NCBI RefSeq assembly: GCF_020832325.1
Contig: NZ_JAFIEU010000017.1
Coordinates: 1-64,000 of the forward strand
Direction of reading: 5' to 3'
DNA length: 64,000 bases
From: Lunatimonas sp.
Lineage (GTDB): Bacteria; Bacteroidota; Bacteroidia; Cytophagales; Cyclobacteriaceae
Shown here: in pieces, positions 1 through 13,887 of the stretch
How the letters are laid out: each line of letters starts with the position of its first letter
Position numbering within the stretch: position 1 is the first letter of the stretch
Position numbers and translations under genes: made by a program
Notes under the pieces: generated by a model
Told to the model about the DNA's origin: nothing
The model's input: the letters and a program-made list of their open reading frames with translations, nothing else
The model's database searches: none

Positions 1-9
1 AAAGTTTTG

Positions 10-216
10 CTACAAATCCTCGTACCATTTTTCCTCAAAGGTGTAGGCACTTTGGACGTCGGCCCTCAGCACGCGGTATACCATCCAAAGTACAAGTATA
101 GGGCTGGCGGAGAACATAAATAGGATAATAGCTGTGTTTAAGTTAACGAATACGGCAGTAAGGTAGATCAGCAAAAAACCGGTGACGGCATATACTGGGA
201 ATAGGAAGGAATTCAT
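10..216 (-). CDS. Small hypothetical membrane protein
   Basis: A 68-residue protein with two closely spaced hydrophobic segments, roughly residues 6-24 and 27-47, followed by a short charged tail that ends in acidic and aromatic residues (EEKWYEDL). This looks like a two-pass inner-membrane protein. No family is recognised and no catalytic motif is visible. It is transcribed divergently from the large secreted protein that starts at 343, and the 126 bp between them hold a good -7 box for that gene. The compositional bias of a real membrane protein supports it being coding, but the evidence is limited to that. Confidence 0.55.
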   Translation of the reverse strand: MNSFLFPVYAVTGFLLIYLTAVFVNLNTAIILFMFSASPILVLWMVYRVLRADVQSAYTFEEKWYEDL

Positions 217-282
217 GGTGTTTTTTTAGTCATATAAACCCTAAACAGGTGGAAATGTTTCCTTTATCCATCTCTTTTTGTC

Positions 283-290
283 TACCTTTG
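283..290 (+). promoter_or_regulatory. Predicted -7 box for the secreted T9SS protein gene
   Basis: TACCTTTG matches the Bacteroidota housekeeping -7 consensus TAnnTTTG exactly. It lies 53 bp before the ATG at 343. A weak TTT-containing -33 element sits about 22 bp upstream. AAAGAGGAG just before the ATG may act as a ribosome binding site. The transcription start is inferred, not observed. Confidence 0.4.
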
Positions 291-342
291 CGTTCCGTCC
301 GGAAGGGTCATATAGGATAAATTTTAGCGTAGAAAGAGGAGT

Positions 343-3300
343 ATGGTTAGTAAGAACTGGGTGTTGTTTGGGAATAGTTTTTTGTTGGCCTTGTTTTGTG
401 TATGTTTTCAGGTACATGCATTTCAACAATCGGACCTTTTTCTATTGAGTAGCGAGGTTGTTGCCAGTTCCGTCCACCAAGCGGCTATCCCCGAATTGGC
501 AACGGACGGAAACCTTAATACAAATTGGACTTCTGATAATCCATTGCCGGACAAGTATCTTTCGCAGTCGCACCAGAATATTTTACTGGGGAAAACCTTG
601 GCCTCTACCGCTTCGGTAAACTTGACTGCCGCAACCGATGGAAACCTACAAACAGCGACTGCACCCATACCGTTGGTAGATGGTGTGGCACGGGTTAGTC
701 TAAGCTTCTCTGCACCGGTTTCGGTACATACATTGGGTATTCGTTTGGGTGGTCTACAGCAGCCAGTGACCTTTCGGCTACAGTTAGCAGATGGGGGTGT
801 TCACGATATGATCTATCCCCAGAGTGCGAATTACCAGCACCTTCGCTTTTCTCCCGACATACCTCAGATTATCGGCTTGGAGTTAAGCAGCCCTGCTGGG
901 TTCTTTATTTATGAATTGGGTATGACACAAGCTCCCTTTCGCGAGTTTTTGACATTTGATCTCCAGGAAGCCCACTGGGTGAAGGAAATCCATACCAAGC
1001 ACTGGGCGGGCTCTGGCAATGCGGAAAAAACTAGCTTATACGCGGGAACCCATCCCGATAGTTTGATCTGGGTGGCCGATTTGAATCCGGAGTCATTGAT
1101 TCTTACGAAAACCGTATTGGAGGAATCTGTTTGGGCCAGGTACCTTCGTTTGGAGCACACCTTGGTTCCCCAAAATTTCCGAAAGGTGTCGGTATTTGAA
1201 TTGATAGCCTTTGGGGAAGAAAAGGAAGTACAGGTTCCCATTCAGCCAGTGACCTGGGATCCCGATGCGGGTATTTATGCACCGCTTTCTAAAGGTGCAA
1301 TTGCACGTGCGAGTTCTTCGGTAACGAATCCAGCTCATCAGCCGGAAGCGGTGTTGGATAATAATTTTGCCACATCGTGGGTATCTGATAATCCCTTACC
1401 AGACAGGTATCTTGCAAATCCGGACCAAAATATCCTTTTGGGCAAGGTGGGAGTAGCCTCCAACGGTGTTTCTGTGGTGCAGGCCACCGATGGCGTGCTG
1501 GGGAATTTCACCCCGGTAATTCAGGTGAGTGCTGGCGAACCTGCATTCTATCGCTTGGATTTGGATCCAATTGCAATCAGACGCTTAAGCCTACGCGTTG
1601 GTTCTGGGGTGTCATCTCCTCTCGCTATCCGTATAGGGAATGCCAACGGGGAAGTGTTGGAATTGGAGCATCCTGCCTGGACAAATGCCAACCGGCGGTA
1701 TGTGGTGGAAATGGATTCAGTGACAGAGATCTTGGTGACTGGAGAGGTGGCCTTTGCCATTCAGGAAATAGGAGCCTATTCAAAGCCGCTTACAGAGCAC
1801 GTAACGGTGGATTTGGGAGAAGTTCGGGAGGTTTCCTGGATCCGAACCAGGCACTGGAACGGAAGCGATAACTCCGTTGCTGCAAGGCTTTTGGCAGGAC
1901 CCTCTCTCGAAGATCTTGCTATGGTAGAGGAACTGGATCCCAGTCGCCTGGATCAACAGCAAATCCAACTGGGTGATCCCGTGTCGGCCCGGTATATCCG
2001 GATAGAACACGATTTGGTGGATCAGGATTTTAAGAAAGCCACTGTGCAAGAGATTACCGTATACGATCAGTTTGGAACCTACGGGCCGCCGCCGCCGCCA
2101 AAACCCCAGCAAAGAAGTTTTGGGGAGTTGTTCGGGTTAAATACGGTTTGGGCCTGGGGTACCAATAAGATACCGAGTTTACAAGGACCCGACGAGGGAG
2201 CGCAGAAGTTTAATCGTGCGGCCTCACAGGCCCGAAACTACCACAATATTCACTGGGACACTACCGACCCGGATGTCACTCCTTCCTACGACCCAGGTAA
2301 CCTGAATGTCCATATGCAATGGACCCAATGGCATCGGGAATACCAAGACTGGCAAAGCAAGGGATTTGAAGTGGACGTAACCTACACCTTCGATCGGTTT
2401 GCTGAGTCGGACTGGACTACACCCTATGAGTCCGCAATGGCGTTGGGGCAGGCCTTCGGAGCGGTCTATGGTCCCCGTAACTTGGATCTGGTAAGGTCGG
2501 TAGAGATCGGTAACGAGCCTTGGAATTACAACGATTCTACCTACGTGAGGATATTGGAGGGGATGGCCAAGGGGTTAAAAGAAACCGATCCCGACCTGCT
2601 CGTACTTCCTGCGGCGCTGCAGGCGTCAGGGTGGGAGGCAGGCAACACCGGGGTAGGCAAAAATTACATGGGTTATAAATTGAGCGAGGCAGCTGCTCCC
2701 TACCTAGATGGGGTGAATTTGCATCTGTATTCGTATGCCCGCAATGAGGCGGGCACGCGAATCGCTGTACATCCAGAACATCCAGAATCTTCTATGCAGG
2801 CCGTATTTGCGGGCATGCGGTTTCGGGACCATAACATGCCAGGCAAAGAGGTGCATGTTACCGAATGGGGTTGGGATGCTACCAGTGCCAACGAGCAGGC
2901 AGTAAATTCAGAAGCAGTAAGCGAGATGTCCCAAGCAATATATGCGCTTAGGGGCTTGTTTTGGCTTAGCCGCATGGGGGTGGATAGGGCGCACTGGTAT
3001 TTTTATGCCAATGTCGATGTGGCTCCGGGCAGAACACCCCTCAATTACGACCGTTCCGGATTGACAGAGTCAAGGCTCTTTAACTTTAGGGAAAAGCGGG
3101 CATTTACGGCAGTGGAATCTATGCAGAATTTAATGGGGGATCTGTATTTTGATGGGGTAATTCAAGAGGATGAACATGCGTATATCTACGCGCTGCGGAA
3201 TGCTCAGGGAGCGCGATCCCATCTGATTGCCTGGAGGCCCGTAGCGGGAGAAGATTCCATGGCGGTACATGTACCATTGCCCTATTTCGGTACGGTTTCA

Positions 3301-3942
3301 CAGGCTTGGTACCTTTCCGGATTGGATGCCGGAGGCGAAAGGGTAACCATTCAGGAGGAAAACGGGCAATGGATGCTGCCACTTTCTTCCATACCCCTTT
3401 TGGTTAGTTTGGGCGAGGATGAAGTATTTGGCGTTTCTAGTGTCAATGCGCTCAATCTTGGTGTAGAGGTTTTATCCGACGAGGTGGAGTTGACACTTTC
3501 CGCAGAGAGCCCACTGGAGGATGGAAGATTGTTGCAACTCTTCGTCGGTCCCGGGAAAAGTTATCGTAAAGTGGATTGGATTCAGACCGATGTTTCGGTG
3601 TGGAAGGCCCGTATTCGGGAAATGGCACCCGGCAGGTATGTGTTCAGCGTTTCTGCCGGAGCCGGACTGGAGTCCAATGTGGTAGCCGCGTCGGTACGGC
3701 CTTGGTTCAGTTTGCATCCGAATCCGGCTTCTGAAAAGACCGTATTGAAGCTTTCCCATCCGTTTGCAGAGGTCAGCACCGTCACCATCATAGGACCTGA
3801 TGGGCAGGTATACAGGGAGTTTGCGATGCCTGCCTTTAGTCAGGAGCTGGAACTTCGCTTGCCTCGCCTGAAGGACGGTTTTTACATGGTCAAGCTGGTC
3901 AATGGAACCTACAATGGGCAGGCTAAATTGTTGAAGAGATGA
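343..3942 (+). CDS. Secreted T9SS protein with duplicated discoidin-like modules and a clan-A glycosidase-like domain
   Basis: This 1199-residue protein has a signal peptide (about residues 1-26). Two homologous modules of about 260 residues follow, near 32-290 and 320-575. Each carries the near-identical motifs SDNPLPD-K/R-YL and NQNILLGK-like strings, and each ends in a discoidin-like strand pattern (ARYLRLEH and ARYIRIEH). A proline run near residue 582 links these to a TIM-barrel-like domain (about 595-960). That domain has EIGNEPWNY (Glu725, candidate acid/base) and HVTEWGWD (Glu841, candidate nucleophile), the two-glutamate layout of clan GH-A retaining glycosidases. The last 80 residues or so (HPNPASEKT onward) form a type A T9SS sorting domain. 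The role is therefore probably a cell-surface or secreted glycoside hydrolase with carbohydrate-binding modules. The GH family and substrate cannot be named from sequence alone. Confidence 0.8.
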   Translation: MVSKNWVLFGNSFLLALFCVCFQVHAFQQSDLFLLSSEVVASSVHQAAIPELATDGNLNTNWTSDNPLPDKYLSQSHQNILLGKTLASTASVNLTAATDGNLQTATAPIPLVDGVARVSLSFSAPVSVHTLGIRLGGLQQPVTFRLQLADGGVHDMIYPQSANYQHLRFSPDIPQIIGLELSSPAGFFIYELGMTQAPFREFLTFDLQEAHWVKEIHTKHWAGSGNAEKTSLYAGTHPDSLIWVADLNPESLILTKTVLEESVWARYLRLEHTLVPQNFRKVSVFELIAFGEEKEVQVPIQPVTWDPDAGIYAPLSKGAIARASSSVTNPAHQPEAVLDNNFATSWVSDNPLPDRYLANPDQNILLGKVGVASNGVSVVQATDGVLGNFTPVIQVSAGEPAFYRLDLDPIAIRRLSLRVGSGVSSPLAIRIGNANGEVLELEHPAWTNANRRYVVEMDSVTEILVTGEVAFAIQEIGAYSKPLTEHVTVDLGEVREVSWIRTRHWNGSDNSVAARLLAGPSLEDLAMVEELDPSRLDQQQIQLGDPVSARYIRIEHDLVDQDFKKATVQEITVYDQFGTYGPPPPPKPQQRSFGELFGLNTVWAWGTNKIPSLQGPDEGAQKFNRAASQARNYHNIHWDTTDPDVTPSYDPGNLNVHMQWTQWHREYQDWQSKGFEVDVTYTFDRFAESDWTTPYESAMALGQAFGAVYGPRNLDLVRSVEIGNEPWNYNDSTYVRILEGMAKGLKETDPDLLVLPAALQASGWEAGNTGVGKNYMGYKLSEAAAPYLDGVNLHLYSYARNEAGTRIAVHPEHPESSMQAVFAGMRFRDHNMPGKEVHVTEWGWDATSANEQAVNSEAVSEMSQAIYALRGLFWLSRMGVDRAHWYFYANVDVAPGRTPLNYDRSGLTESRLFNFREKRAFTAVESMQNLMGDLYFDGVIQEDEHAYIYALRNAQGARSHLIAWRPVAGEDSMAVHVPLPYFGTVSQAWYLSGLDAGGERVTIQEENGQWMLPLSSIPLLVSLGEDEVFGVSSVNALNLGVEVLSDEVELTLSAESPLEDGRLLQLFVGPGKSYRKVDWIQTDVSVWKARIREMAPGRYVFSVSAGAGLESNVVAASVRPWFSLHPNPASEKTVLKLSHPFAEVSTVTIIGPDGQVYREFAMPAFSQELELRLPRLKDGFYMVKLVNGTYNGQAKLLKR

Positions 3943-4128
3943 TTGTCACAAGTTCCTATTCGCGTTAACTGTAAAAAATCGTGAGATACACCCATTGTCT
4001 TTTTAACCTTGTGGTTGCTTTCTGCCTTTTTAAACAAGCTGAAAACCTATACAGACTGAACAGTAAATTTGTTTTCAATAAAAGAGTTCGCAATCCTTTA
4101 CTTATATCCTTGGTTAATGGGTATTCTG

Positions 4129-4809
4129 TCAATTATCCCATAAAGACAATTTTCCCGCCTTGAAAACATTAAAACTCAACGAAATAAAAAGCACATTAGC
4201 TTGGTAGTTTTCAAAAGGCCGGAAAGAAGTACCGGTATCCGGATCGGTAGCGGTAAAATTCCTGTTAAAGAACTCTGTTGGGTAATACTTTACCTTAATG
4301 CTTGTGCCTCCCGGGAGTGTCATCCCTGCGAAAACCGAGCTTTGCCATAAATTGACCCGGTCACTAAACCAAACATTGAATCGGTCAATTCTCCTCTCGT
4401 CTCTAAAAGTTCGTTCCCGATAGTTAAATGCCCATTCCAATTCATACCCCGCAAAGAAAAATTGCCGATTGAGGTCTCCGATTTTGATACCAATAGGAAT
4501 CCCGAGGTTATAACTCCTGACTTTTTTTCTTATGGACGAAGATTCATCAAAAATGAATCCCACATTTCTTAGATTGGTACCGGTAAACCAGCCAAAGTTT
4601 TTGCTTTGATCAAAATTTAGAAAGTTCTGTAGGTTGATAACCGGGGCCCATCGAACCACGTTGTTATAACCATCTACCGTACCACCTGAGAATATCCATT
4701 CCCCCCCGGAACTCCAATACGTTTTGGGAAATACACTGACTTCTTTCTGCGCCTGTACAAGGAAGGAATATTGAATCATGAAAGCGATCAGGAGTAGTTT
4801 TCTTTTCAT
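4129..4809 (-). CDS. Secreted outer-membrane beta-barrel-like protein
   Basis: 226 residues with a clean signal peptide ending near FLVQAQ (about residue 21). The mature part is rich in alternating aromatic and hydrophobic residues, glycine and arginine, with strand-like repeats such as FFAGYELEWAFNYR and SIKVKYYPTEFF. This is typical of small Bacteroidota outer-membrane barrels of about 8-10 strands. No specific family is recognised. It stands alone, convergent with the end of the T9SS protein gene and separated by about 360 bp from the repeat-protein gene upstream. Function unknown; possibly a porin-like or structural envelope protein. Confidence 0.7.
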   Translation of the reverse strand: MKRKLLLIAFMIQYSFLVQAQKEVSVFPKTYWSSGGEWIFSGGTVDGYNNVVRWAPVINLQNFLNFDQSKNFGWFTGTNLRNVGFIFDESSSIRKKVRSYNLGIPIGIKIGDLNRQFFFAGYELEWAFNYRERTFRDERRIDRFNVWFSDRVNLWQSSVFAGMTLPGGTSIKVKYYPTEFFNRNFTATDPDTGTSFRPFENYQANVLFISLSFNVFKAGKLSLWDN

Positions 4810-5168
4810 AATGTAACACTATAAATCTTGAAGTAAGACTAAGTTACAAAAACACAACCCTACTCAAAACCCTAAAGTTTGAATTTAATTAAAAACTAAT
4901 TTTTTATGTAATTCTGTGCGCCACGAGGGAAGCGTTTTTTTAATCTGAAAATTAAGGAACACTAGTATACGTCCTAGCATGCAGCCATCATCTAAAATAT
5001 TATTAGCCATACAGCTACTGTTGTTTCCTTATGCGAAGGTGATAAAAACGTGGGGGCATAACAACCATTTCTGCCCAAGCGTCAAGTGTATCCCTACCTT
5101 AGTTTTTGGTAAGGCTTTGTATGCAGGAAAATCTATCCGAGAGATACTATTCGAAAGGCCTTTTGATA
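4810..5168. other. Gene-free AT-rich intergenic stretch
   Basis: About 360 bp lie between the start of the barrel gene (minus strand) and the stop of the repeat-protein gene (minus strand). It should contain the promoter of the barrel gene. No convincing hairpin, repeat or RNA gene is visible. A 67-codon open frame on the plus strand (4979-5182) runs into the repeat gene and has no supporting features. Confidence 0.5.
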
Positions 5169-5741
5169 CTAATCCTTTTTGATTACCTCAACGGGGGCTA
5201 AGCCGGGTATACCGTGTTGATTTTGGTATACATCGTATCCCCCCGATTGATTAGGTTTCAATGTCTGGCTTGGAGAAATGGAGGGAATGCCATGCTGATT
5301 GTCAAACACGTCAAATCTGCCTGAAAAACCCGGTTTGATGGTCTTGGTGGGTGAGATGGAAGGGATTCCGTTTTGGGTATCATAGATGTCGAAACCTCCA
5401 TTTCGGGTAGGTTTGATGATTTGATACGGCGTAATTTCCGGAATACCGTTTTGGGTATTGTAAATTTCCTTTTCACCGCTGGGCCGGATTTTTATCACCT
5501 GTGATGGGGCAACATCAGGAATACCTTGGTTGTTTTGATACAGGTTTAGGGTATTAGGGCTGTTTGCTGGCTTGATGGTAGTAGCAGGAAAAATCGAGGG
5601 AATGCCATTTTCCGTGGAATACGTTTGGATGGTCTGTGCAGAGAGTGGACCAAAGTAACAAATGATTAGAACGATTGGAAAGAGGACAAAATGAAGTATT
5701 CTAGGCCGATAAATGATAGTTGTGGGATGGTAGCTTTTCAT
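5169..5741 (-). CDS. Secreted NGIP-repeat protein
   Basis: 190 residues: a long-n-region signal peptide (cleavage likely after SAQ near residue 36), then almost nothing but six tandem units of 26 residues. The Gly-Ile-Pro of each unit lies at residues 46, 73, 99, 125, 151 and 177, so the period is 27 once and then exactly 26. The unit reads roughly Y-x-[TN]-[EQ]-[NGH]-G-I-P-x-[IVL]-x-P-x-x-x-[IL]-K-x-x-x-x-G-x-x-[DE]-[IV]. The last unit is truncated at KKD. Two conserved prolines, a conserved lysine and glycine, and alternating hydrophobics suggest a short beta-hairpin solenoid or a repeat that binds a surface or metal, but no known repeat family is recognised. The gene is divergent from the FtsZ-like gene, with 147 bp between their starts. 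Confidence 0.75.
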   Translation of the reverse strand: MKSYHPTTIIYRPRILHFVLFPIVLIICYFGPLSAQTIQTYSTENGIPSIFPATTIKPANSPNTLNLYQNNQGIPDVAPSQVIKIRPSGEKEIYNTQNGIPEITPYQIIKPTRNGGFDIYDTQNGIPSISPTKTIKPGFSGRFDVFDNQHGIPSISPSQTLKPNQSGGYDVYQNQHGIPGLAPVEVIKKD

Positions 5742-5888
5742 GGTTATGGAGAGATTGTTAATAAGTTAGGATACGAGAAAAATGGTTTTTTGGCTTAAAA
5801 TTCAAGGTCAAATTAAGGGTTTGAAGTGAATTTGTCTAATTTAGCCACCATTGGATTTTTAAACAACCTCTAAAAACGGGCATCAACC

Positions 5889-6464
5889 ATGACCAAACTA
5901 CAAAAACGCAATTTAATCGTTTGCGGCAATGCGGCAATGTGCGTTTTGGAAACCTGCGCGGATTGGGACTCTCTTCCTTATGACCATATTATCTTTGTCA
6001 ATCACCGGGATGTGAGGCATAAGGAGGTTAGTTACACGTGGGTGCCCTTTCAAGCGCCCGCGGAGCACTACGGGTATATCGAAGCCATCGGCGTTTATAC
6101 CAGTCGGAAGCAGATTTACCCCGTTCCTTTGCCATTGGGCTTACAGTCGGCCATATTGAAAGGAGACGGACTCTGGACAGTTTTTGCTTGTTTGGGTGGA
6201 GCTGGTGGGTGCACGCTTTACCTGTCTTTGGCGCTATACTTGGCCGGAAAGGACTTGGGTGCGCGGTTTATCGGTAGCGTACCGTTCAGGTTTGAGGGCA
6301 AGAAAAAGATAAGCCGGGTACAGGATATTATAGATAAAGTAGCTGATATCCATTCTCAGGAGGTGGTCCAGCTGGATCGGGTTAGAGAGCATGGTAGGTT
6401 GTTGTCAGTTGCTAAGTATTTTCAGCACGCTGATCAGGAGTTGCTACAGGTCCTTAGAGGGTAA
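5889..6464 (+). CDS. Short FtsZ/tubulin-like protein lacking the T7 and C-terminal half
   Basis: 191 residues. The N-terminus (NLIVCGNAAMCVLET, then DHIIFVNHRDVRHKEV) matches the first two strands of FtsZ (VIGVGGxGxNAV; EFIAVNTDxQ). Residues 96-109 (WTVFACLGGAGGCT) sit where FtsZ has its tubulin signature VFxxxGxGGGTGTG. Residues 132-140 (PFRFEGKKK) match the FtsZ PFxFEGxxR strand. Near the end, DRVREHGRLLSVAKYF plus ADQELLQVLRG match NDRLL...AFxxADxVLxQAVxG at the start of helix H7. The protein stops there, before the T7 catalytic loop and the C-terminal subdomain. The phosphate-binding glycine loop is degenerate (GGAGGCT for GGGTGTG). It is thus an FtsZ-derived nucleotide-binding-half paralogue of unknown function, probably without GTPase activity. 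The homology is by motif reading; no search was run. Confidence 0.7.
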   Translation: MTKLQKRNLIVCGNAAMCVLETCADWDSLPYDHIIFVNHRDVRHKEVSYTWVPFQAPAEHYGYIEAIGVYTSRKQIYPVPLPLGLQSAILKGDGLWTVFACLGGAGGCTLYLSLALYLAGKDLGARFIGSVPFRFEGKKKISRVQDIIDKVADIHSQEVVQLDRVREHGRLLSVAKYFQHADQELLQVLRG

Positions 6465-6696
6465 GTGAATGCAGTGGTCAGTGGATAGCCTGAGCAATAA
6501 TCATTGGTAGTTGAGTGTTTGAGTTTTTGGTGTCAATGACATATAAAGTGTCACCAGTGTAAAATAATCTAGAATAATATTTTATAAATGAATTCAAAAG
6601 AAGAATATTAGGTTTGTTCTTTAATTTATGCCTAGGCTGTTTATTTCTTGGTACTGCAAAAAAATTTAAAAAAAGTAGAGGTTTTCTAGGACAAAA

Positions 6697-6728
6697 TTGG
6701 CAGGTTATCCGTATTGGTTGTAGATTTG
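6697..6728 (+). promoter_or_regulatory. Predicted promoter of the small lipoprotein gene
   Basis: TTG at 6697-6699 is followed after 21 bp by TAGATTTG at 6721-6728. This fits the Bacteroidota sigma-A arrangement of a -33 TTTG/TTG and a perfect -7 TAnnTTTG box with a 19-23 bp spacer. The expected start of transcription, near 6735, leaves a 25-nt leader before the ATG at 6760. The surrounding 6465-6759 region is AT-rich and otherwise holds only a small palindrome, TGTCA-A-TGACA, at 6531-6541. Confidence 0.55.
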
Positions 6729-6759
6729 AATTTGAAACTGATCCAATTACCTTATTACC

Positions 6760-7017
6760 ATGAAAAGGCTTTTCCTGTTTCTTCCAGATATTTTTTTTGT
6801 AATGCTGATTGTCTTTAGCTGCGAGCGGGCCGACCTGTCAGAATGGCGGCAGCCCAGGGATTATTTTTTATCCGAAAATCCAATGGCTCTCAATAACTTG
6901 GATATGGAAATGTCTTTTTCAGAACGGGAGCGGTGGGTTGATCTCATGGAAGAATATCGAGGTAAGGCCGTGTCTTTTCTGCATCATTGGAAAGGGAGGG
7001 TTTCGGATAGCCTGTGA
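6760..7017 (+). CDS. Small hypothetical lipoprotein
   Basis: 85 residues with a hydrophobic signal and a lipobox (VFSC, cysteine near residue 21), so it is probably exported and lipidated. The mature part is acidic and helical (for example FSERERWVDLMEEYRG) and resembles no family I recognise. A well-formed promoter directly upstream supports the gene being real despite its size. It is convergent with the Gfo/Idh/MocA gene. Confidence 0.55.
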   Translation: MKRLFLFLPDIFFVMLIVFSCERADLSEWRQPRDYFLSENPMALNNLDMEMSFSERERWVDLMEEYRGKAVSFLHHWKGRVSDSL

Positions 7018-7067
7018 TATAAAAGAATAATGCTATTTGTGTTTTTTTGCTTCTTTTTTCCCATAAC

Positions 7068-7100
7068 AAAAAAAGGGATAAAGACCTTCGCCTTTATCCC
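7068..7100 (-). terminator. Intrinsic terminator of the sugar operon
   Basis: A perfect 9-bp stem, GGGATAAAG (7075-7083) with CTTTATCCC (7092-7100), has an 8-nt loop. On the minus strand it is followed by seven U residues (A-run 7068-7074). It lies 30 bp after the stop of the oxidoreductase gene and ends the minus-strand operon. Confidence 0.85.
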
Positions 7101-7129
7101 CCGACTCAATAGGTTTGATAATGAATGCG

Positions 7130-8245
7130 TTACTTTTTTAACGTGAATTCGGGCAATGGAATAATCTCTCCTCCTTTCATGGCAGATTCATGGGCCAAAA
7201 TACCCACACAAGTGATATTGGCCGACTGCCGTGCATCGGGGTAGGGAGCACGTCCCTCATGGAGTGCAGTCAAAAACTCGTGCACCAGGTGGGGGTGGGA
7301 ACCGCCGTGACCTGCACCTTGAATAAAGGAAAGGTGCTGATTGTCGTCGGAATCGTATACACCTGCTGTGGTAAAGGAAGAAATTTCTTCGGGCAGCAGG
7401 TGAGCGTAGTCGGGTATTTTCACACGGGAGGGTTCTTCACCTGTGTGGATCACGCTATCCTCGTGCTCGATCAGGGTCCATTCAAACGATTTTTTGGAGC
7501 CGTACACATCAAAGCTCTCCCGGTACTGCCGGGCCGTGTTAAAAAGGGAACGGGTAACCTCGGCAGAAAGGTCCGAATCCTTCAGTTTGATATGACAGGT
7601 TTCGATGGCAAAGGGTGAGCCATATTTTTCGATCAGGTTTTCGTCGATACGGCCGGAACCGAAGCATGACACGTATTCTGCTTGGGCCTTTGGTAGTGCC
7701 AATACCGGACCTACGCAGTGGGTGGCGTAGTGCATAGGAGGTAGCCCTTCCCAGTAACCAGGCCATCCGGCCATTTCCTGTTGGTGGCTAGCACGCAGAA
7801 ATTGGATCTTACCCAGTTCCCCTTTCTCCAGCATCTCCTTTACGAAGAGAAATTCACGGCTGTAGATGACCGTTTCCATCATCATATAGGTGAGACCGGT
7901 TCGTTCGGTTTCTTCCACGATCTGTCTGCATTCCTCTACGGTGGTAGCCATGGGTACGGTACATGCCACATGCTTTCCTGCCCGCAGTGCCTTCAGCGAT
8001 TGTTCTGCATGGGCTTGTATGGGTGTGTTGATGTGTACCGCGTCGATATTGGGATCTTTAAGCAGTTCATCGTAGTCGGTATACCGCTTTTCTACGCCGA
8101 AGGCGTCACCGATTTCGTGTAGTTTCTCTTCGTTTCGCTGGCAGATGGCATACATGTTAGCCAAGGGATGCTTTTGGTATATGGGGATAAATTCGGCCCC
8201 AAAACCCAATCCGATAATGGCAATGTTTATTTTCTTATCACTCAT
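7130..8245 (-). CDS. Gfo/Idh/MocA-family oxidoreductase without the usual EKP lysine
   Basis: 371 residues. The N-terminal Rossmann domain starts INIAIIGLGFGAEF, followed by the family pattern DAVHINTPIQAHAEQSLKAL and GKHVACTVPM. At this position most members have GKHVxxEKP, whose lysine takes part in catalysis; here residues 95-99 read CTVPM, so the lysine is absent. The C-terminal alpha/beta domain is complete and the length is normal. Last gene of an operon with the epimerase and the ThuA-fusion protein, so it probably oxidises, reduces or otherwise processes a sugar or keto-sugar. No signal peptide is present, so it is cytoplasmic. NAD(P) binding is expected from the family; the reaction cannot be fixed from sequence. 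Confidence 0.85.
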   Translation of the reverse strand: MSDKKINIAIIGLGFGAEFIPIYQKHPLANMYAICQRNEEKLHEIGDAFGVEKRYTDYDELLKDPNIDAVHINTPIQAHAEQSLKALRAGKHVACTVPMATTVEECRQIVEETERTGLTYMMMETVIYSREFLFVKEMLEKGELGKIQFLRASHQQEMAGWPGYWEGLPPMHYATHCVGPVLALPKAQAEYVSCFGSGRIDENLIEKYGSPFAIETCHIKLKDSDLSAEVTRSLFNTARQYRESFDVYGSKKSFEWTLIEHEDSVIHTGEEPSRVKIPDYAHLLPEEISSFTTAGVYDSDDNQHLSFIQGAGHGGSHPHLVHEFLTALHEGRAPYPDARQSANITCVGILAHESAMKGGEIIPLPEFTLKK

Positions 8246-8284
8246 GTTAAAAATAGTTTTATGTTGATGGGTTGTTGAATTAAC

Positions 8285-9142
8285 TTAGGAAGCCCAGGAT
8301 TTTAGAAATTTCAGTCCCTCAGAGGCAAAGGCGTCCTGGGATTCTGCCAATGGCCTCCAGATACAAACAGCGCCGGCGAGTTCCTTGATCTCGGGAGTGA
8401 AGCTTTCGATGGATACCACGCCTTGGTAGCCTACGAGTTCCAAACCTTTGCGGTAGTCTTCCCAGCGTGTTTGACCGGTTCCGGGTGTTCCCCGGTAGTT
8501 TTCGGACACCTGCACGTGTATCAGCTTATCGCCCACTCGGGAGATGGCATCGACAATATTCCTTTCTTCGATATTCATATGGAACCCGTCCAGCAGCACT
8601 TTGGCAGCGGGATGGTTGATGTCATCGATCAATTGCATCAGGTCCTCCGTATTGTTGATCAAGTCAGTTTCAAACCGGTTTAAGGGTTCAAGGGCAATTT
8701 CCTGCCCATATTCGGTTGCCATTACACACACTTTGTGCAGGTTGTTTACCGCTAGGTCCCATTCCATTTTTTTCTTGTCTGGAGGAAGCAGCCTGGCTTT
8801 GCCTACGGCGGAATACATGGGGCCGGCCACAAAGCGGGCACCTACTTCTGCACTGATCTGAAAGCATCGGCGGATATAATCCAGACTGGTCTTATGGTAG
8901 GAGGGATCCTCGTGGGTTAGGTCTCTGCTGGGACCAAACGCGCCGCAGATGACAGGCTTGAGATCCTGTTCTTCCAAGGCATGCTTTACTTTTTGGGCGT
9001 CTATCAATGCAGGATCCTCCACCGGGATTTCCACCGCATCAAATCCCATCTCTTTTATCTTTGAAAAGAGCGAGGTGGTTTCGGTAGTGAATGGTGAAGT
9101 CCACAGCCAGGTGGTCGTGGCAAAGGTTACATTTAAGCTCAT
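8285..9142 (-). CDS. D-tagatose/D-psicose 3-epimerase-like sugar epimerase
   Basis: 285 residues forming a xylose-isomerase-like TIM barrel. The four metal ligands of the ketose 3-epimerase family are visible: Glu152 (ALEPLNRFE), Asp185 (LLDGFHMNIEE), His209 (IHVQVSEN) and Glu246 (SIESF). The NRFE, HMNIEE and SENYRGTPGTG signatures are those of D-tagatose/D-psicose 3-epimerases rather than of endonuclease IV or inosose dehydratase relatives. The enzyme should be cytoplasmic and divalent-metal dependent, interconverting C3 epimers of a ketose or a keto-sugar. It sits between the ThuA-fusion gene and the oxidoreductase on one strand, with a strong hairpin in the gap upstream of its start. The natural substrate is not decidable here. 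Confidence 0.85.
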   Translation of the reverse strand: MSLNVTFATTTWLWTSPFTTETTSLFSKIKEMGFDAVEIPVEDPALIDAQKVKHALEEQDLKPVICGAFGPSRDLTHEDPSYHKTSLDYIRRCFQISAEVGARFVAGPMYSAVGKARLLPPDKKKMEWDLAVNNLHKVCVMATEYGQEIALEPLNRFETDLINNTEDLMQLIDDINHPAAKVLLDGFHMNIEERNIVDAISRVGDKLIHVQVSENYRGTPGTGQTRWEDYRKGLELVGYQGVVSIESFTPEIKELAGAVCIWRPLAESQDAFASEGLKFLKSWAS

Positions 9143-9158
9143 GTTTGGTTGGTTTAGG

Positions 9159-9187
9159 ACGTCCGGGGATAAGATCTCCCCGGACGT
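9159..9187 (-). promoter_or_regulatory. Intercistronic hairpin without a U-tract
   Basis: A perfect 11-bp inverted repeat, ACGTCCGGGGA (9159-9169) with TCCCCGGACGT (9177-9187) and a 7-nt loop, fills the gap between the ThuA-fusion gene and the epimerase gene. It is 16 bp upstream of the epimerase ATG. On the minus strand the sequence after it has no U-run, so it is more likely an RNA-stabilising, processing or attenuating element within the operon than a full terminator. Confidence 0.65.
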
Positions 9188-9212
9188 TCAAATGTGCAAA
9201 AGGTCCGTCGGG

Positions 9213-12200
9213 TTACTCGACAATCATAATTCCGTTCATGATTCTCCAGTGGCCGGGCACCGTACAGATGTATACGTACTCTCCGGGTTCGGAAGGAGCT
9301 CTGAAAACCAAGGACTCGCTGGTTTCCGGATCCACCAACCGGGTGGAAGCGATGACCTCTGGGATCTTGGGCACGTAGTTCATATCTGCACCTTTGGGGT
9401 CACGGGCTAGTTCGTCCGCGGCCTTGCCCACCGTTTCCAAGGTGCCAGGTTTCGCAATGACCAGGTTGTGCTGCATGAAGTCGTTGTTTTCAAAATCGAT
9501 GGTAACCTGCGCATTTGCCTTTACGGTAAAGGAAGGTTTGTCGTATTTCATTTCATGTTGGATCACTCCCAACTTCACCGTGACAGTACCTGAGGCAGGC
9601 GAATCCTGCGTGGCAGCACCACTTGCAGCAGTTGATGCGGCATCTGCGTTAGGCTGTATTAGTTTTAGTACCGATGCTCTTGGGTTCATCCTTCCCCGGA
9701 ACCAAAAGGGTCTTGGGTAGTCTCCTACTTGGTTGTCGCCCATGTTGTCATTTCCGATGCGCACGCGTTCTTGGGACAATGCCGCTGCGAAAAGCCCGTT
9801 GGCTTTGCCCGAGGCAACCTCAGAATCGTTTATCAGAAGCTTCATCTGGCCGCCTTCGAGCAAGTTAGCCTGTACGGTAAATTGCTCGGAGGGTAGGGAA
9901 CCCCGTGTATTCAGTTTGTACGTTCTACCATCCTGCTTCACTAGCCAGTGAATCGCGTTATTTTGGATGTAAAGAGAATATCCGTTTTGGTTGTTGCCCT
10001 GAGCAATGATCACCCCTTCCAAGGGATCATCGCTCTTGCTGATGGTGGCTTGGATATGAATTTCCTTTCCCTCCACACTGGGAGGAAAGGGAATACCGGA
10101 TCGACGGTCTAGATTGTACTGTTCCTCTACCAAGCTTTTGGCCACGCGTTCCGTTAGGGTAAGCAGCGAGTCGGGTTTGTTTATCGCGCCAATTTGGTTT
10201 ACCTGCTCATCAAAGGACCGGGGGTGGGAGAGCGCCGCGGCAAAGATCGCCTGTGGCAGGTAATTGTCCGCGTTGTTTTCTTCTCGCAAGCTGGCATCCA
10301 GAATGGCTTTCCCTACTGCCGTAGAGGTCGGCATGTCTGCCAGCGCCAGGAAGGCGGTTTTGCGAACGTTGAGGTCGCTGTCATTGGCCAGGTTGGCATC
10401 TAAAATAGCTTGGGCTGTAGCTTCATTTCTGGGCAGCACCATGAGTGCATTCTTTCGTACACCAGCCGCCGGATGTTTCAGGGCTTTTACCACGATACGG
10501 ATCGCCGCATCGTTGGATCCGTTCAGTTCACCCAAGCCATGCAACGCCCAAAGCGCGTGAACTGCCGGACTGTTCAGTCCGATCTCGTCTACTTCGGTGT
10601 TGTCGATGATTTTCAGCAGGTCGTTTACGATGCCGTTGTTTTGGGTTTCAACGATAAGGCGCTGTGCCGTTCTTCTCCAAAACATGTTGTCACTTTTAAT
10701 ACCTGCGATTAGGTCTTTGTTGCTCGATGGATCGATACTTAGCACTTTTCCTTCGGGTGCTCCTTTGTACACCAACCGATAAATTCGACCGTGTTGAGTA
10801 TCCCGAAGGGGGTTGATATAGGCGTTACCCGGTCCATTTTCAAAGCCTTTGGGTGTAGGGTTATGCTGAATGATAAAATTATACCAATCGGCGATCCAAA
10901 GCGCTCCGTCAGGACCTACTTCAGCATGCACAGGGGAGAACCACTCGTCGGAACTGGCGAGGATGTTAAAGCCGTTTCGCTCCCGGAAACCTGACCCTTC
11001 CACTTCCAGGATGGCATTGTGCAATACCCTTCCGGTAGGTTCGGCCACAAAAGCTACCCGGTTCCAATAGGACTTGGGAAACTGCCTGGCGGTATAGAGA
11101 TGGTGCCCTGCGGCAGCCGTATAGCTACCATGCCAATCCACCTGCCGCAAAAACGGGGTGAGATGAGGCATGTCGTAGTGGGTGTCAATTCCGTGAACGG
11201 CATTGACCGATCCTCCGCGAACGGGACGTCTCACAAAGCGACTAGGCATGGCTAGGTAGGCACTGTGCTGACCGTTTGCCGTTGAGATGAATACGTTGAA
11301 TTCTTCGGAAAAACCAAGCCCCCAAGTATTGTTGCTGGTGTTACCCAGAAATTCGAAATCGGTTCCATTGGGATTGAAGCGGTATACGCCTTGGCTGAAG
11401 TTAAACTGTTTGCCGTCTATGGTGCCATTGAAGCCAGAATAGCCCAATACCCCCCAAACTTTGTTGTCAAAACCGTACATCAGATTAGAAGGTCCAGCGT
11501 GTGTATCGCTTTTGCCCCATCCTGTAATGACGGTTTCACGCAGATCCGCTTTTCCGTCTCCGTTGGTGTCTTTGAAAAATACAAAGTCCGGTGCCATGGA
11601 AACTAGTAGGCCTCCGTTTACAAAGACCATGCTGGTCGGTATATTTAGGTTATCGGCAAATACGGTGATTTTGTCGGCTTTGCCATCTCCATTGGTATCT
11701 TCGAAGATCTTGATGCGGTCGTTTCCTCCCTCGCTTCGTACCTCGTTGGGATAATCTTCCGTTTCGATCACGTATAATCTTCCTTTGTCATCCCAAGTCA
11801 TTGCCATGGGATTCACGATATCCGGTTCAGAAGCAAATAGTTGCAATTCAAATCCCACGGGGACTTGAACGAGTTTCATAGACTCTTCTGGAGATAAGGG
11901 GTGCTGATACTGTGGTGGAGGATCCCTTCTTTCGTAGTTGGGTATATCGGCATCGGTAAATACAGGGGTGGGTATCTGATAATCGGCTACCTGCTTGGCC
12001 AATTTTTCCCCTACTGCCCACATGACACCATTGGCCACCAGCTGATGAAACTCCGGCTTGGACCAGGTACGTTCATCGTGTCCATAAGCGGTGTAGAATA
12101 CACGTCCTTTGCCTTGCTCACGTACCCAAGTCCATGGTTCCCGATGATCTCCCTCTACACGCTCCATCAAAACGGTCATGTCCGGGTTCAGCTGGCTATG

Positions 12201-12710
12201 TACATACGTTTCATCCCAAGTTTCAAATTCAGAAACGCCGTTCATCACCGGGTGGCTAGCATCGATGATGTCAACGGTAAAATCACCTACGCCGTGTGAT
12301 TTAAATTGTCCTCCAACGGCCTTGACAAACCAATCGGAGTTTCTGAAACAAAAAGAGGCACTGTGCAATGGAATCAGCGCTCTGCCGCCTTCCACAAATT
12401 CACGTAAGGCTTTTTCCTGCGCGGGCGTGATCTCGTCGTGGTTGGCATAGATCATGACACCGTCAAAATAGGAAAGGTAGTCGGCATTTAAGTCGTCGGG
12501 ATCCGACGTGTAGGTTAGGTTGATGCCTTTTCGGAAAAGCGGATTGGCCAGCATGGGCATCAGCTTTTCAGAGTGGTGGTGCTGACTGTCATGTCCCAAA
12601 AAGAGTATTTCCACTCTCCTGGGCCCGTCAGATCTCCGGTCTTTGGTGGTGCTTTCCCCACAGGCAAACAATAGCAGGCAGGAAAGAAATAGCAAACCGA
12701 TCTGTCTCAT
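9213..12710 (-). CDS. Lipoprotein fusing ThuA, PVC-type dehydrogenase propeller, HEAT repeats, a lectin-like domain and azurin
   Basis: 1165 residues. A lipobox (LFAC, cysteine 17) predicts an exported lipoprotein. Domains in order: ThuA-like (about 30-240, with EILFLGHD and GRVFYTAYGHDERTW); a membrane-bound dehydrogenase beta-propeller (about 275-640, with the DxNGDGKAD repeats usual in this family); HEAT-like helical repeats (about 660-860); a concanavalin/LamG-like sandwich (about 870-1020); and a C-terminal type-1 copper domain. In the last, the azurin ligands are all present: a histidine in MQHNLVIA, Cys1149, His1154 and Met1158 in CTVPGHWRIM. Relatives often carry a CxxCH haem domain; none is visible here, so copper may replace haem as electron acceptor. 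First gene of an operon with the epimerase and oxidoreductase. Periplasmic or surface oxidation of a sugar is a reasonable inference; the substrate is unknown. Confidence 0.85.
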   Translation of the reverse strand: MRQIGLLFLSCLLLFACGESTTKDRRSDGPRRVEILFLGHDSQHHHSEKLMPMLANPLFRKGINLTYTSDPDDLNADYLSYFDGVMIYANHDEITPAQEKALREFVEGGRALIPLHSASFCFRNSDWFVKAVGGQFKSHGVGDFTVDIIDASHPVMNGVSEFETWDETYVHSQLNPDMTVLMERVEGDHREPWTWVREQGKGRVFYTAYGHDERTWSKPEFHQLVANGVMWAVGEKLAKQVADYQIPTPVFTDADIPNYERRDPPPQYQHPLSPEESMKLVQVPVGFELQLFASEPDIVNPMAMTWDDKGRLYVIETEDYPNEVRSEGGNDRIKIFEDTNGDGKADKITVFADNLNIPTSMVFVNGGLLVSMAPDFVFFKDTNGDGKADLRETVITGWGKSDTHAGPSNLMYGFDNKVWGVLGYSGFNGTIDGKQFNFSQGVYRFNPNGTDFEFLGNTSNNTWGLGFSEEFNVFISTANGQHSAYLAMPSRFVRRPVRGGSVNAVHGIDTHYDMPHLTPFLRQVDWHGSYTAAAGHHLYTARQFPKSYWNRVAFVAEPTGRVLHNAILEVEGSGFRERNGFNILASSDEWFSPVHAEVGPDGALWIADWYNFIIQHNPTPKGFENGPGNAYINPLRDTQHGRIYRLVYKGAPEGKVLSIDPSSNKDLIAGIKSDNMFWRRTAQRLIVETQNNGIVNDLLKIIDNTEVDEIGLNSPAVHALWALHGLGELNGSNDAAIRIVVKALKHPAAGVRKNALMVLPRNEATAQAILDANLANDSDLNVRKTAFLALADMPTSTAVGKAILDASLREENNADNYLPQAIFAAALSHPRSFDEQVNQIGAINKPDSLLTLTERVAKSLVEEQYNLDRRSGIPFPPSVEGKEIHIQATISKSDDPLEGVIIAQGNNQNGYSLYIQNNAIHWLVKQDGRTYKLNTRGSLPSEQFTVQANLLEGGQMKLLINDSEVASGKANGLFAAALSQERVRIGNDNMGDNQVGDYPRPFWFRGRMNPRASVLKLIQPNADAASTAASGAATQDSPASGTVTVKLGVIQHEMKYDKPSFTVKANAQVTIDFENNDFMQHNLVIAKPGTLETVGKAADELARDPKGADMNYVPKIPEVIASTRLVDPETSESLVFRAPSEPGEYVYICTVPGHWRIMNGIMIVE

Positions 12711-12778
12711 TTTAAGCAGTTTATTTGGGTGTATATTTTACAAGTAATCTAAGGGTAAAGATGGAAAAAAAATATCGA

Positions 12779-12820
12779 CGATTCTCACTGTATTTTACCC
12801 GATTCTGACTTTATTTTAAC
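12779..12820. promoter_or_regulatory. Tandem 21-bp direct repeat, candidate AraC operator
   Basis: Two adjacent 21-bp units, 12779-12799 and 12800-12820, both start CGATTCT and both contain TATTTTA. They agree at 18 of 21 positions. A 21-bp period puts both on the same face of the helix, which is the classical layout of AraC/XylS-family half-sites. The pair lies 69 bp before the ThuA-fusion gene and 189 bp before the divergent AraC-family gene. The binding itself is inference. Confidence 0.5.
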
Positions 12821-13008
12821 ATTATTATCGATAATTTGGTTTATTTTGTGCATATATTGGTAAGAAGAGGGGGTTAGGTAGTCCGAATACACCGAAGGAG
12901 GGAAGCGAATACTTTCCCGCCATATTTCCTTTTCCCCGCCTTTAAAATAGGTGATTTCAGGGACTGAGAAAGCGATTATTCCAAAAGAATCTCTTATAAA
13001 TTAGACAG

Positions 13009-13884
13009 ATGCAACGACCTTTTCAAAAATCGAGGATACCGGAGAGCAGGGCCTTTGTGGTGAAGGAACTGATCGCTCCCCATTTTGATAAAAACTGGCA
13101 TTTCCACCCGGAATACCAACTCTTTTTGGTCTTGGAGGGTCGGGGTACTCGTTTTGTGGGGGACCACATGAAAGCCTTTCGGGAATACGATTTGGTGTTT
13201 ACCGGTCCAAATCTACCCCACCTCTGGCGTAACGATCAAAGCTATTTCGAGAAAGGGAGTGACAAACAAACACACGGAATCGTGGTGTATTTCCCAGAAG
13301 ATTTTATCGGTAGGTCCCTGTTGGAAAAGGAAGAGTTTGAGGGATTGCGCCACCTGTTGACCAAGGCAGACCGGGGCTTGGAGATTTCCGGGGAGACGAA
13401 CGTGCAGCTTAGGCAGCTGATGAAAGAACTGGTGCATCTGAAAGGACTAGACAGCATCATCGCTCTCTTTGACATGTTGCGCCTGATGGCTCGATCCAAG
13501 GACTGTCATCCCATCGTGCAGGCCGGTTACACCAACCTAAACAAGGCATCGGAGGAGGACCGTATGAGTCAGGTGTACGAATATGTGATGGATCGTTTTT
13601 CTCAGGGCATCAAGCTGGAAGAGGTGGCTGGCCTCACCAATATGACGGCCAGTTCCTTCAGTCGTTATTTTAAATCCCGTATGAACAAATCTTTTTCGGA
13701 TTTTCTATCGGATGTTCGGATTAGTCATGCCTGCAAGCTGCTGCATGAGGATGCGCTAAACGTCAGTGAGATTTGCTACGAATCTGGTTTTAACACCCTT
13801 TCCAATTTTAACCGACAGTTCAAAGACCGGATGGGTATGACACCCATGGCCTATCGAAGGGACTTTCAGCAACGCTTTGAATGA
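13009..13884 (+). CDS. AraC-family transcriptional regulator
   Basis: 291 residues. The N-terminal half is a cupin-like ligand-binding domain (about 15-130; HFDKNWHFHPEYQLFLVLEG is typical). The C-terminal half (about 185-288) has two helix-turn-helix motifs, including LTNMTASSFSRYFKSR and the family signature ICYESGFNTLSNFNRQFK. It reads divergently from the ThuA-fusion operon, across a 298-bp region holding a 21-bp direct repeat. This makes it the likely sugar-responsive activator of that operon. It ends 3 bp from the stop of the convergent symporter gene. Confidence 0.9.
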   Translation: MQRPFQKSRIPESRAFVVKELIAPHFDKNWHFHPEYQLFLVLEGRGTRFVGDHMKAFREYDLVFTGPNLPHLWRNDQSYFEKGSDKQTHGIVVYFPEDFIGRSLLEKEEFEGLRHLLTKADRGLEISGETNVQLRQLMKELVHLKGLDSIIALFDMLRLMARSKDCHPIVQAGYTNLNKASEEDRMSQVYEYVMDRFSQGIKLEEVAGLTNMTASSFSRYFKSRMNKSFSDFLSDVRISHACKLLHEDALNVSEICYESGFNTLSNFNRQFKDRMGMTPMAYRRDFQQRFE

Positions 13885-13887
13885 GGC

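What the first reader, a model, noticed from the sequence alone, without database searches (positions are those of the whole stretch)
5889..6464. Stand-alone half-FtsZ protein with a degenerate nucleotide loop
Seen: motif-by-motif match to FtsZ strand 1, the tubulin-signature position (LGGAGGCT instead of GGGTGTG), PFRFEGKKK, and the H7 start, ending before the T7 loop. Known: FtsZ hydrolyses GTP only when T7 of one subunit meets the nucleotide of the next. Inferred: a protein with one assembly face and a changed loop could cap or modulate FtsZ filaments, or be a repurposed non-polymerising nucleotide sensor. I know of no described family of this form.
Basis: partly seen in the sequence, partly recalled or inferred. 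Interest (0 to 1): 0.8.

Follow-up and report, generated by a model that had tools for sequence, protein, structure and literature searches.

The report
Stand-alone half-FtsZ from defence-island family
This gene makes half of the bacterial division protein FtsZ, folded but lacking the parts needed to form filaments, and its relatives sit next to ATPase and regulator genes in bacterial defence islands, which hints at an undescribed immune or stress module.

Summary
Window 5889-6464 (+) encodes 191 aa whose AlphaFold2 model (pLDDT 86, pTM 0.85) superposes on FtsZ from strand S1 to the end of helix H7 (best Z 18.6) and then stops: no T7 loop, no C-terminal domain. It is not chance: a 14-row family profile finds ordinary FtsZ at up to about E 3e-19, and 17 of 370 family genomes carry stand-alone members (3 of them only broken copies). 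The loop GGAGGCT is not conserved; the sister species has GGVTGT, most of the family G..[TS]G[TS].

New here is the family's context. Of 17 intact loci, 13 have a WYL regulator and 13 an AAA-type partner; in 9 the partner is a Clp-like AAA+ without its P-loop, and 9 loci have restriction-type nucleases nearby. Twelve of 13 members with an N-terminal leader carry a Tat-like motif. The window copy is a leaderless orphan, diverging fast but under purifying selection; in a third species it is a remnant beside a 142-repeat CRISPR array.

Most likely it works by docking rather than GTP hydrolysis, as a derived piece of an undescribed WYL/AAA/half-FtsZ module. Action on FtsZ is untested.

The parts
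5889..6464 (+). CDS of the leaderless half-FtsZ, 191 aa
5907..5942 (+). S1 strand and T1 loop region (aa 7-18): the glycine-rich FtsZ T1 loop is replaced
6192..6215 (+). T4 'tubulin signature' position, LGGAGGCT (aa 102-109), where FtsZ has GGGTGTG
6282..6308 (+). PFRFEGKKK (aa 132-140), T5/T6 region with the conserved Glu
6408..6458 (+). helix H7 (aa 174-190) with the retained Phe and Asp; the protein ends here, before T7
6760..7017 (+). small lipoprotein-like ORF (85 aa) that marks the same site in G001 and G002; context only
7130..8245 (-). oxidoreductase ORF (Gfo/Idh-like, name recalled from sequence), syntenic anchor in all three congeners; context only

Best explanation
The window protein is an orphan, leaderless member of an undescribed family of stand-alone FtsZ N-terminal domains ('half-FtsZ'). 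The main form of the family is one part of a WYL-regulated module with an AAA-type partner, carried in defence islands of Cyclobacteriaceae. Shown by computation: the fold, the truncation after H7, the family, the gene association. Follows from FtsZ knowledge: without the T7 loop and C-terminal domain it cannot complete a GTPase site or extend a filament. Inferred: it acts by docking, as a binding or regulatory subunit that an AAA protein (intact P-loop in some loci, P-loop-less and Clp-like in most) senses or remodels, with the WYL protein controlling expression, and the module serves anti-phage or anti-mobile-element defence. In the window species the dedicated AAA and WYL partners are missing, so the protein must work alone or with a housekeeping Clp or FtsH, or is a fading remainder.
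For: Fold. Homology by profile: A2 hits FtsZ frames in most genomes of the order sample (own FtsZ E 2e-17, best ordinary FtsZ 2.6e-19); TIGR00065 matches 7 of 10 relatives scanned, all far below its cut-off (best 6.9e-6). Family: 17 of 370 genomes, 6 of 84 genera; 17 rows on one side of a 100/100 branch, window + G002 nested. Module: of 17 intact loci 13 have the WYL protein and 13 an AAA-type partner within 8 kb (9 P-loop-less 'gene B', 2 Bcs1-like AAA, 2 AAA+ with M41 peptidase). Gene B's model matches Clp/HSP100 D2 domains (shown rows Z 9.6-11.8); its P-loop is lost against intact neighbours. Searched on its own, gene B is in 12 of 380 family genomes, 11 of which are among the 17 half-FtsZ genomes. 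Defence setting: PDDEXK_4/PDC-S26, Mrr, GmrSD, type I R-M, ArdC and an integrase near various members. A half-FtsZ outside the family (G854) adjoins WYL and GmrSD too. Constraint: window vs G002 pN 0.39 against saturated pS 0.855, frame open. FtsZ is also met inside a known defence gene: a Septu PtuA with a whole FtsZ inserted.
Against: No experiment. The window locus has neither WYL nor AAA partner; gene B is absent from its genome at E<=1, and the AAA model finds only frames that look like FtsH and Clp. No PADLOC model matched the three half-FtsZ and two gene B proteins tested (best E 0.013). The partner profiles were built from loci of this same set, so the counts describe rather than test blindly. 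hhalign of gene B against intact AAA+ has probability only 23, and many VIA rows have rmsd near 15-17 over two subdomains. A Tat-like leader on 12 of 13 leadered members suggests export, which fits poorly with a cytoplasmic AAA complex. The gene is a wreck in congener G001 and only broken copies are held in 3 of the 17 genomes; one gene B genome (G366) shows no half-FtsZ ORF beside it.
Confidence: 0.5

Rival explanations
1. FtsZ cap or sequesterer: the half-FtsZ uses its nucleotide-side face to dock on the T7/synergy-loop face of FtsZ, as the next subunit would, and blocks elongation; division arrest would be its output.
For: It keeps the half that meets the synergy loop and lacks the half that continues the chain. 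Phage Gp0.4 blocks FtsZ and is predicted to bind its synergy-loop surface (PMC13423816, abstract and passages). Division-related domains occur as effectors in conflict systems (PMC7159879, section 17).
Against: T1 and T3 loops and several pocket residues are rewritten. Twelve of 17 intact members bear a Tat-like leader. No linkage to ftsZ. FtsZ rows have short branches while the half-FtsZ clade diverges enormously, which is odd for a protein docking on a near-constant surface.
Confidence: 0.2
2. Repurposed non-polymerising nucleotide sensor: the altered pocket binds a nucleotide (not GTP in the usual way) and reports it to the partner.
For: In 17 of 17 members one T1 Gly, two T4 Gly and the Glu of FEG stay; the H7 Phe is F or Y in 17 of 17; the H7 Asp stays in 16 of 17; T or S at the second T4 threonine in 15 of 17. 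WYL domains are called ligand-binding regulators of defence systems (title seen in a reference list).
Against: The guanine-side Asn and the T2 Asn are lost in 17 of 17 (roles recalled). The window copy also lost both T4 threonines.
Confidence: 0.15
3. Fading remainder: in the window's genus the gene lost its operon and leader and is on the way out; the open frame is a late stage of decay.
For: Orphan in both intact congeners; 43% identity where three syntenic neighbours keep 89-98%; remnant with stops beside a CRISPR array in G001; both T4 threonines lost only in the window among 17 rows.
Against: pN 0.39 against pS 0.855 and an open 191-codon frame at synonymous saturation imply selection for most of the divergence; the model is confidently folded.
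Confidence: 0.15

Closest known systems
FtsZ (bacterial division tubulin)
   Same: Fold of the N-terminal GTP-binding domain through helix H7; PF.FEG in 15 of 17, Gly of T1 and T4, F/Y and D of H7; 'LR..YGN...R.AF.KAD'-like tail shared with the species' own FtsZ in most members
   Different: No T7 loop, C-terminal domain, linker or tail; T1, T3, T4 changed; a full FtsZ is encoded elsewhere in the same genome, after an ftsA-like ORF
FtsZl1 and FtsZl2 (Makarova and Koonin 2010, PMC2875224; parts 1-2 of 5 read)
   Same: Divergent FtsZ-domain proteins found beside a normal FtsZ
   Different: FtsZl1 (Huta_2051, 1051 aa) has a coiled coil and C-terminal domain and vWA, OmpA or kinase neighbours; FtsZl2 keeps all motifs plus about 300 aa. 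Intact half-FtsZ members are 177-224 aa, end at or just after H7, and neighbour WYL and AAA proteins
FtsZ/tubulin domains in MoxR-vWA and GTPase-centred conflict systems (Kaur et al. 2020, PMC7159879; section 17 and search passages)
   Same: Rare FtsZ/tubulin-superfamily domains, and MinD- and FtsK-like domains predicted inactive, inside conflict systems, some with AAA+ ATPases
   Different: Those systems centre on MoxR-vWA or GTPases. Here the partner is Clp-like or Bcs1-like and the regulator is WYL
Clp/HSP100 AAA+ as FtsZ remodellers
   Same: Gene B has this fold; ClpXP degrades FtsZ (PMC3983244, start of abstract in listing)
   Different: Gene B lost the P-loop; the window genome has no gene B
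CapRel-Ebc sensing of FtsZ bound to phage Gp0.4 (PMC13423816; abstract and passages)
   Same: FtsZ takes part in anti-phage sensing
   Different: There the full host FtsZ is bound, by prediction at its synergy-loop side; half-FtsZ lacks that side, so it could not stand in for that target

Membership tests
FtsZ | N-terminal GTP-binding (tubulin) fold | tested here: met
   AF2 pLDDT 86; VIA Z 18.6 over 170 residues, 50 of 50 shown rows FtsZ
FtsZ | tubulin signature GGGTG(S/T)G in T4 | tested here: not met
   GGAGGCT in the window; 21 of 21 FtsZ rows keep GGGTGTG
FtsZ | T7 (synergy) loop and C-terminal domain | tested here: not met
   protein ends at H7, stop codon 6462-6464
FtsZ | GTP hydrolysis and polymerisation | not testable with these tools
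   no assay; inferred absent from the missing T7 loop
FtsZl1 (PMC2875224) | FtsZ-like domain followed by an extended coiled coil and a helical C-terminal domain | tested here: not met
   the protein is 191 aa and wholly covered by the FtsZ N-domain
FtsZl1 (PMC2875224) | operon with vWA, OmpA or kinase genes | tested here: inconclusive
   no vWA, OmpA or kinase family listed for the selected proteins of relatives' loci; not every neighbour was scanned
FtsZl2 (PMC2875224) | motifs T1, T4, T6, T7 and H7 plus about 300 aa C-terminal region | tested here: not met
   T7 and C-terminal region absent
PADLOC-listed defence system | half-FtsZ or gene B matches a PADLOC model | tested here: not met
   window protein, 2 relatives and 2 gene B proteins: hits no better than E 0.013
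Half-FtsZ family defined here | stand-alone FtsZ N-domain ending at H7; no Asn at the FtsZ LNDK position; clade | tested here: met
   window nests in the 17-row clade, has Leu at the Asn position (0 of 17 have Asn), but lost the T/S of T4 that most keep
WYL/AAA/half-FtsZ module | WYL regulator and AAA-type partner within 8 kb | tested here: not met
   neither at the window locus (scanned from base 1 to 14464) nor at G002; gene B absent from the genome
Tat substrate (leadered half-FtsZ members) | N-terminal RR.[FL].[KR] followed by a hydrophobic stretch; TatC in the genome | tested here: inconclusive
   motif in 12 of 13 leadered members, absent in the window; TatC in 15 of 15 genomes; TIGR01409 reached in 1 of 10 proteins and below cut-off

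The most novel reading that the evidence does not exclude
WYL / AAA / half-FtsZ is a new anti-phage module built on two pseudo-enzymes: an FtsZ half that cannot hydrolyse or polymerise and, in its commonest form, a Clp-like ATPase without a P-loop. In the boldest version the Tat-like leader makes it a tripwire: while the membrane is energised the folded half-FtsZ is exported; when infection collapses the proton-motive force it stays in the cytoplasm and stops division or triggers the partner. The window species would keep only a leaderless, always-cytoplasmic derivative.
Probability: 0.3. Interest if true: 0.85.

Novelty: new variant of a known kind. Interest (0 to 1): 0.6.

Why it matters
FtsZ is among the most conserved bacterial proteins, and a family of natural half-FtsZ proteins would show that its nucleotide domain can live alone and be repurposed. 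If the module is defensive, it adds a tubulin-fold part and a dead Clp-like ATPase to bacterial immunity, at a time when FtsZ has just been shown to take part in immune sensing (PMC13423816). It makes a direct test possible: do bacteria use FtsZ mimics as sensors or as division-arresting effectors? The Septu gene with a whole FtsZ inside, met in passing, points the same way. The window copy also offers a natural N-domain to probe what FtsZ's nucleotide-side face can bind without polymerising.

Tried and rejected
Chance resemblance: rejected by fold and profile. Recent truncated copy of the species' own FtsZ: rejected; 13-20% identity to FtsZ structures in the rows shown, and the clade is separated by a branch of 4.84 changes per column. 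A leader or longer N-terminus in the window: rejected, 5 further codons only. Phage, plasmid or viral origin: tblastn with an Algoriphagus member found no match in 50,697 phage and 72,556 plasmid records; three viral-contig scans matched 24, 88 and 1 stretches, none confirmed; these scans are pattern-limited. Stand-in for the target of Gp0.4-like phage proteins: disfavoured, because the predicted bound face is missing. Partner elsewhere in the window genome: gene B none at E<=1; the AAA model finds frames of 697, 842 and 875 aa that look like FtsH and Clp (names inferred); WYL matches reach only E 9e-35 over the C-terminal part, against 1e-132 for module WYLs. The gene B model is less sure (pLDDT 78.6, loop 142-150 under 50). 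Literature: nine searches showed no description of this family among the titles and abstract starts listed; six of them had more papers than were listed, and most subscription papers are not held. Rows dropped before counts: the tree used 23 FtsZ rows of 57 at hand (and own) and 18 half rows; the residue counts used 17 half rows and 21 FtsZ rows; broken copies (G171, G286, G370) were left out of both, G854 out of the residue counts. The alignment behind the model (A7) holds one truncated member, L101.

Full report
OBSERVATION. Window 5889-6464 (+) is one ORF of 191 aa. Pfam and NCBIfam list nothing for it at E<=10; phmmer against PDB chains gives 22 hits, 21 of them FtsZ, best E 0.0017 over residues 95-191. 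Modelled with nine sequences from eight named-genome loci, it folds with mean pLDDT 86.1 and pTM 0.85. Foldseek has 110 PDB hits at E<=0.001, and the 50 shown are FtsZ. VIA-align shows 50 of 50 FtsZ rows, best 1w5f_A with Z 18.6, rmsd 2.6, 170 residues; residues 4-191 lie on B. subtilis FtsZ 11-196 (2vxy). So it is the FtsZ nucleotide domain with the whole connecting helix H7, and it stops where T7 would follow.

FAMILY. In the window's genus, G002 has an intact relative (44%) and G001 a remnant. In 390 family genomes the single protein finds stand-alone relatives at 23-44% identity, next to three hits that are FtsZ-sized frames of 520-527 aa. A 14-row profile (window and 13 relatives) has matches in 344 of 390 genomes of the order and 271 of 395 of the phylum, nearly all of the rows shown being FtsZ-sized frames (own FtsZ E 2e-17; best ordinary FtsZ 2.6e-19). 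With a threshold that excludes FtsZ, 17 of 370 family genomes and 6 of 84 genera hold half-FtsZ. In 14 of the 17 at least one copy is intact; those of G171, G286 and G370 are truncated or broken. Named loci: Algoriphagus terrigena, A. boseongensis, A. mannitolivorans, A. formosus (two), A. aquaeductus (truncated copy), two Algoriphagus MAGs (one copy broken) and Cognataquiflexum aquatile. NCBI places Algoriphagus in Cyclobacteriaceae; contig lengths tie A. terrigena to G301, so the window's family group is that one. On a tree of 41 rows the 17 members of this family lie on one side of a 100/100 branch, window and G002 inside; FtsZ rows lie across a length of 4.84 changes per column, and the tool warns of long-branch joins.

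POCKET. Across 17 intact members and 21 FtsZ rows: one T1 Gly, the Gly at signature positions 1 and 5 of T4, and the Pro, Glu and Gly of PF.FEG stay in 17 of 17; the H7 Phe is F or Y in 17; the H7 Asp stays in 16. The T2 Asn and the Asn of LNDK are gone in 17 of 17; T3 GAGANPE is not recognisable. T4 has T or S at signature position 4 in 14 and at position 6 in 15; it reads GGVTGT in G002 and GGAGGCT in the window, the only row without T or S at both. Contact roles of these residues are recalled from FtsZ structures. The pocket is altered, not erased.

CONTEXT. I scanned 8 kb on each side of 17 intact loci of the family, where contigs allowed. A WYL protein is present in 13 of 17; the P-loop-less partner 'gene B' in 9, a Bcs1-like AAA in 2 (G022, G156), an AAA+ with M41 peptidase in 2 (G227, G306c), so 13 of 17 have an AAA-type partner. 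The four without WYL are G000, G002, G085 and G306a; the four without AAA are G000, G002, G085 and G231b. PDDEXK_4 (PADLOC PDC-S26), Mrr or GmrSD proteins lie near 9 of 17. The commonest order is WYL, divergent, then gene B, then half-FtsZ within about 50 bases. A type I R gene, an HsdM, ArdC-like proteins and an arm-type integrase occur near single members; the integrase is beside the truncated G286 copy. The profiles and references were taken from these same loci, so the counts describe the set. Less circular: gene B searched alone is in 12 of 380 family genomes, 11 of which are among the 17 half-FtsZ genomes; the twelfth, G366, has gene B and WYL but no half-FtsZ ORF. Outside the family, G854 (same class, unnamed) has a 235-aa FtsZ half with a Pfam Tubulin hit (1.6e-23) that runs into a T7-like stretch, beside WYL and GmrSD proteins. 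On the tree it lies between, much nearer FtsZ; one origin of all 18 is not excluded.

GENE B. It has no Pfam match at E<=1 in three proteins tested; its AF2 model is fair (pLDDT 78.6, pTM 0.76). The 50 Foldseek rows shown are Clp/HSP100-type AAA+; the 50 VIA rows have Z 9.6-11.8, with ClpC, ClpA, ClpB, ClpX, Hsp104, SMAX1 and torsin, often at rmsd near 15-17 over two subdomains. Intact AAA+ neighbours read LWGMTGVGKT where gene B reads LIGYGKR or LVGFEQR: the P-loop is gone.

LEADER. Twelve of 13 leadered members start with an RR.[FL].[KR] motif and a mild hydrophobic stretch. Among 432 ORFs of at least 100 aa in loci of 9 kb or more the motif occurs 18 times, with 10 distinct starts, all half-FtsZ (overlapping loci count repeatedly). 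TatC is in 15 of 15 genomes tested. TIGR01409 is reached in one of ten proteins, below cut-off. Four intact members have no leader: window, G002, G227 and G306c.

THE WINDOW COPY. Against G002 it keeps 43% identity, pN 0.39 and saturated pS 0.855; three syntenic neighbours keep 89-98% (dN 0.02-0.07); a small lipoprotein-like ORF next to it keeps 54%. An open 191-codon frame at synonymous saturation speaks for selection (inference). In G001 only pieces of the 3' half survive, with stops (tblastn 43% over residues 101-168), and 142 exact CRISPR repeats, about 66 bases apart, start within 20 bases of them. The genome has no gene B, no dedicated AAA and only more distant WYL proteins.

FtsZ IN A KNOWN DEFENCE GENE. 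The strongest profile hit that was not a half-FtsZ (1.1e-19, G575) proved to be a Septu gene: PtuA (PADLOC E 8e-139) with a whole FtsZ inside (Pfam Tubulin residues 98-257, FtsZ_C 306-402), followed by PtuB (8e-90). It is one genome, and an assembly fault is not excluded, but it shows FtsZ used as a part of a defence protein. I leave my odds as they were.

MECHANISM. Shown: fold, truncation, family, association. From FtsZ knowledge: no hydrolysis and no elongation without T7. Inferred: action by docking; a module in defence; the AAA protein as sensor or remodeller. FtsZ capping remains a rival: a half-FtsZ offers the face that meets the synergy loop, the loop that phage Gp0.4 is predicted to cover (PMC13423816), but leaders, rewritten loops and speed of change speak against it. 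Division-protein domains, some predicted inactive, are effectors in other conflict systems (PMC7159879), which makes a defence role reasonable. I found no earlier description in the listings of nine paper searches.

VERDICT. The feature is real and more interesting than reported at family level, though the window copy itself is an orphan that may be on its way out.

Noticed in passing
L124:6133-9299 (G575, same order): A Septu operon whose PtuA (790 aa) carries a nearly whole canonical FtsZ (GTPase and C-terminal domains) inserted in frame between its ATPase halves, followed by PtuB; the genome has another, ordinary FtsZ. Looks like an FtsZ bait built into a defence ATPase; one genome, assembly fault not excluded.
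   Followed up: partly
L038:9986-19313 (congener G001): A CRISPR array with 142 exact 30-base repeats begins within 20 bases of the half-ftsZ remnant, and a Cas2-like ORF (name recalled) lies at 19550-19864; the array may have replaced the gene's 5' half.
   Followed up: partly
window 5169-5741 (-): 190-aa secreted-looking protein of imperfect repeats of about 30 aa (..NGIPSISP..IKP..), no Pfam match at E<=0.001; no such ORF in the lists of L037 and L038 near the site.
   Followed up: no
L033:6188-8946: AAA+ fused to an M41 (FtsH-like) peptidase beside a 177-aa leaderless half-FtsZ whose T4 reads GFGSGNG; an unknown 198-aa protein (L033:5548-6144) recurs with it in L120.
   Followed up: partly
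L119:4412-5119 (G854): Half-FtsZ (235 aa) outside the family, with near-canonical T1 and a T7-like stretch, next to WYL and GmrSD proteins; may be a younger truncation.
   Followed up: partly
window 6760-7017 (+): Small lipoprotein-like ORF, 54% identical to G002 while three other neighbours keep 89-98%; also evolves fast.
   Followed up: partly
L034:6974-7693, L101:4523-5230, L105:4655-5362: A 235-239 aa protein recurs near the WYL gene in three islands; two of the three were scanned and have no Pfam match.
   Followed up: no
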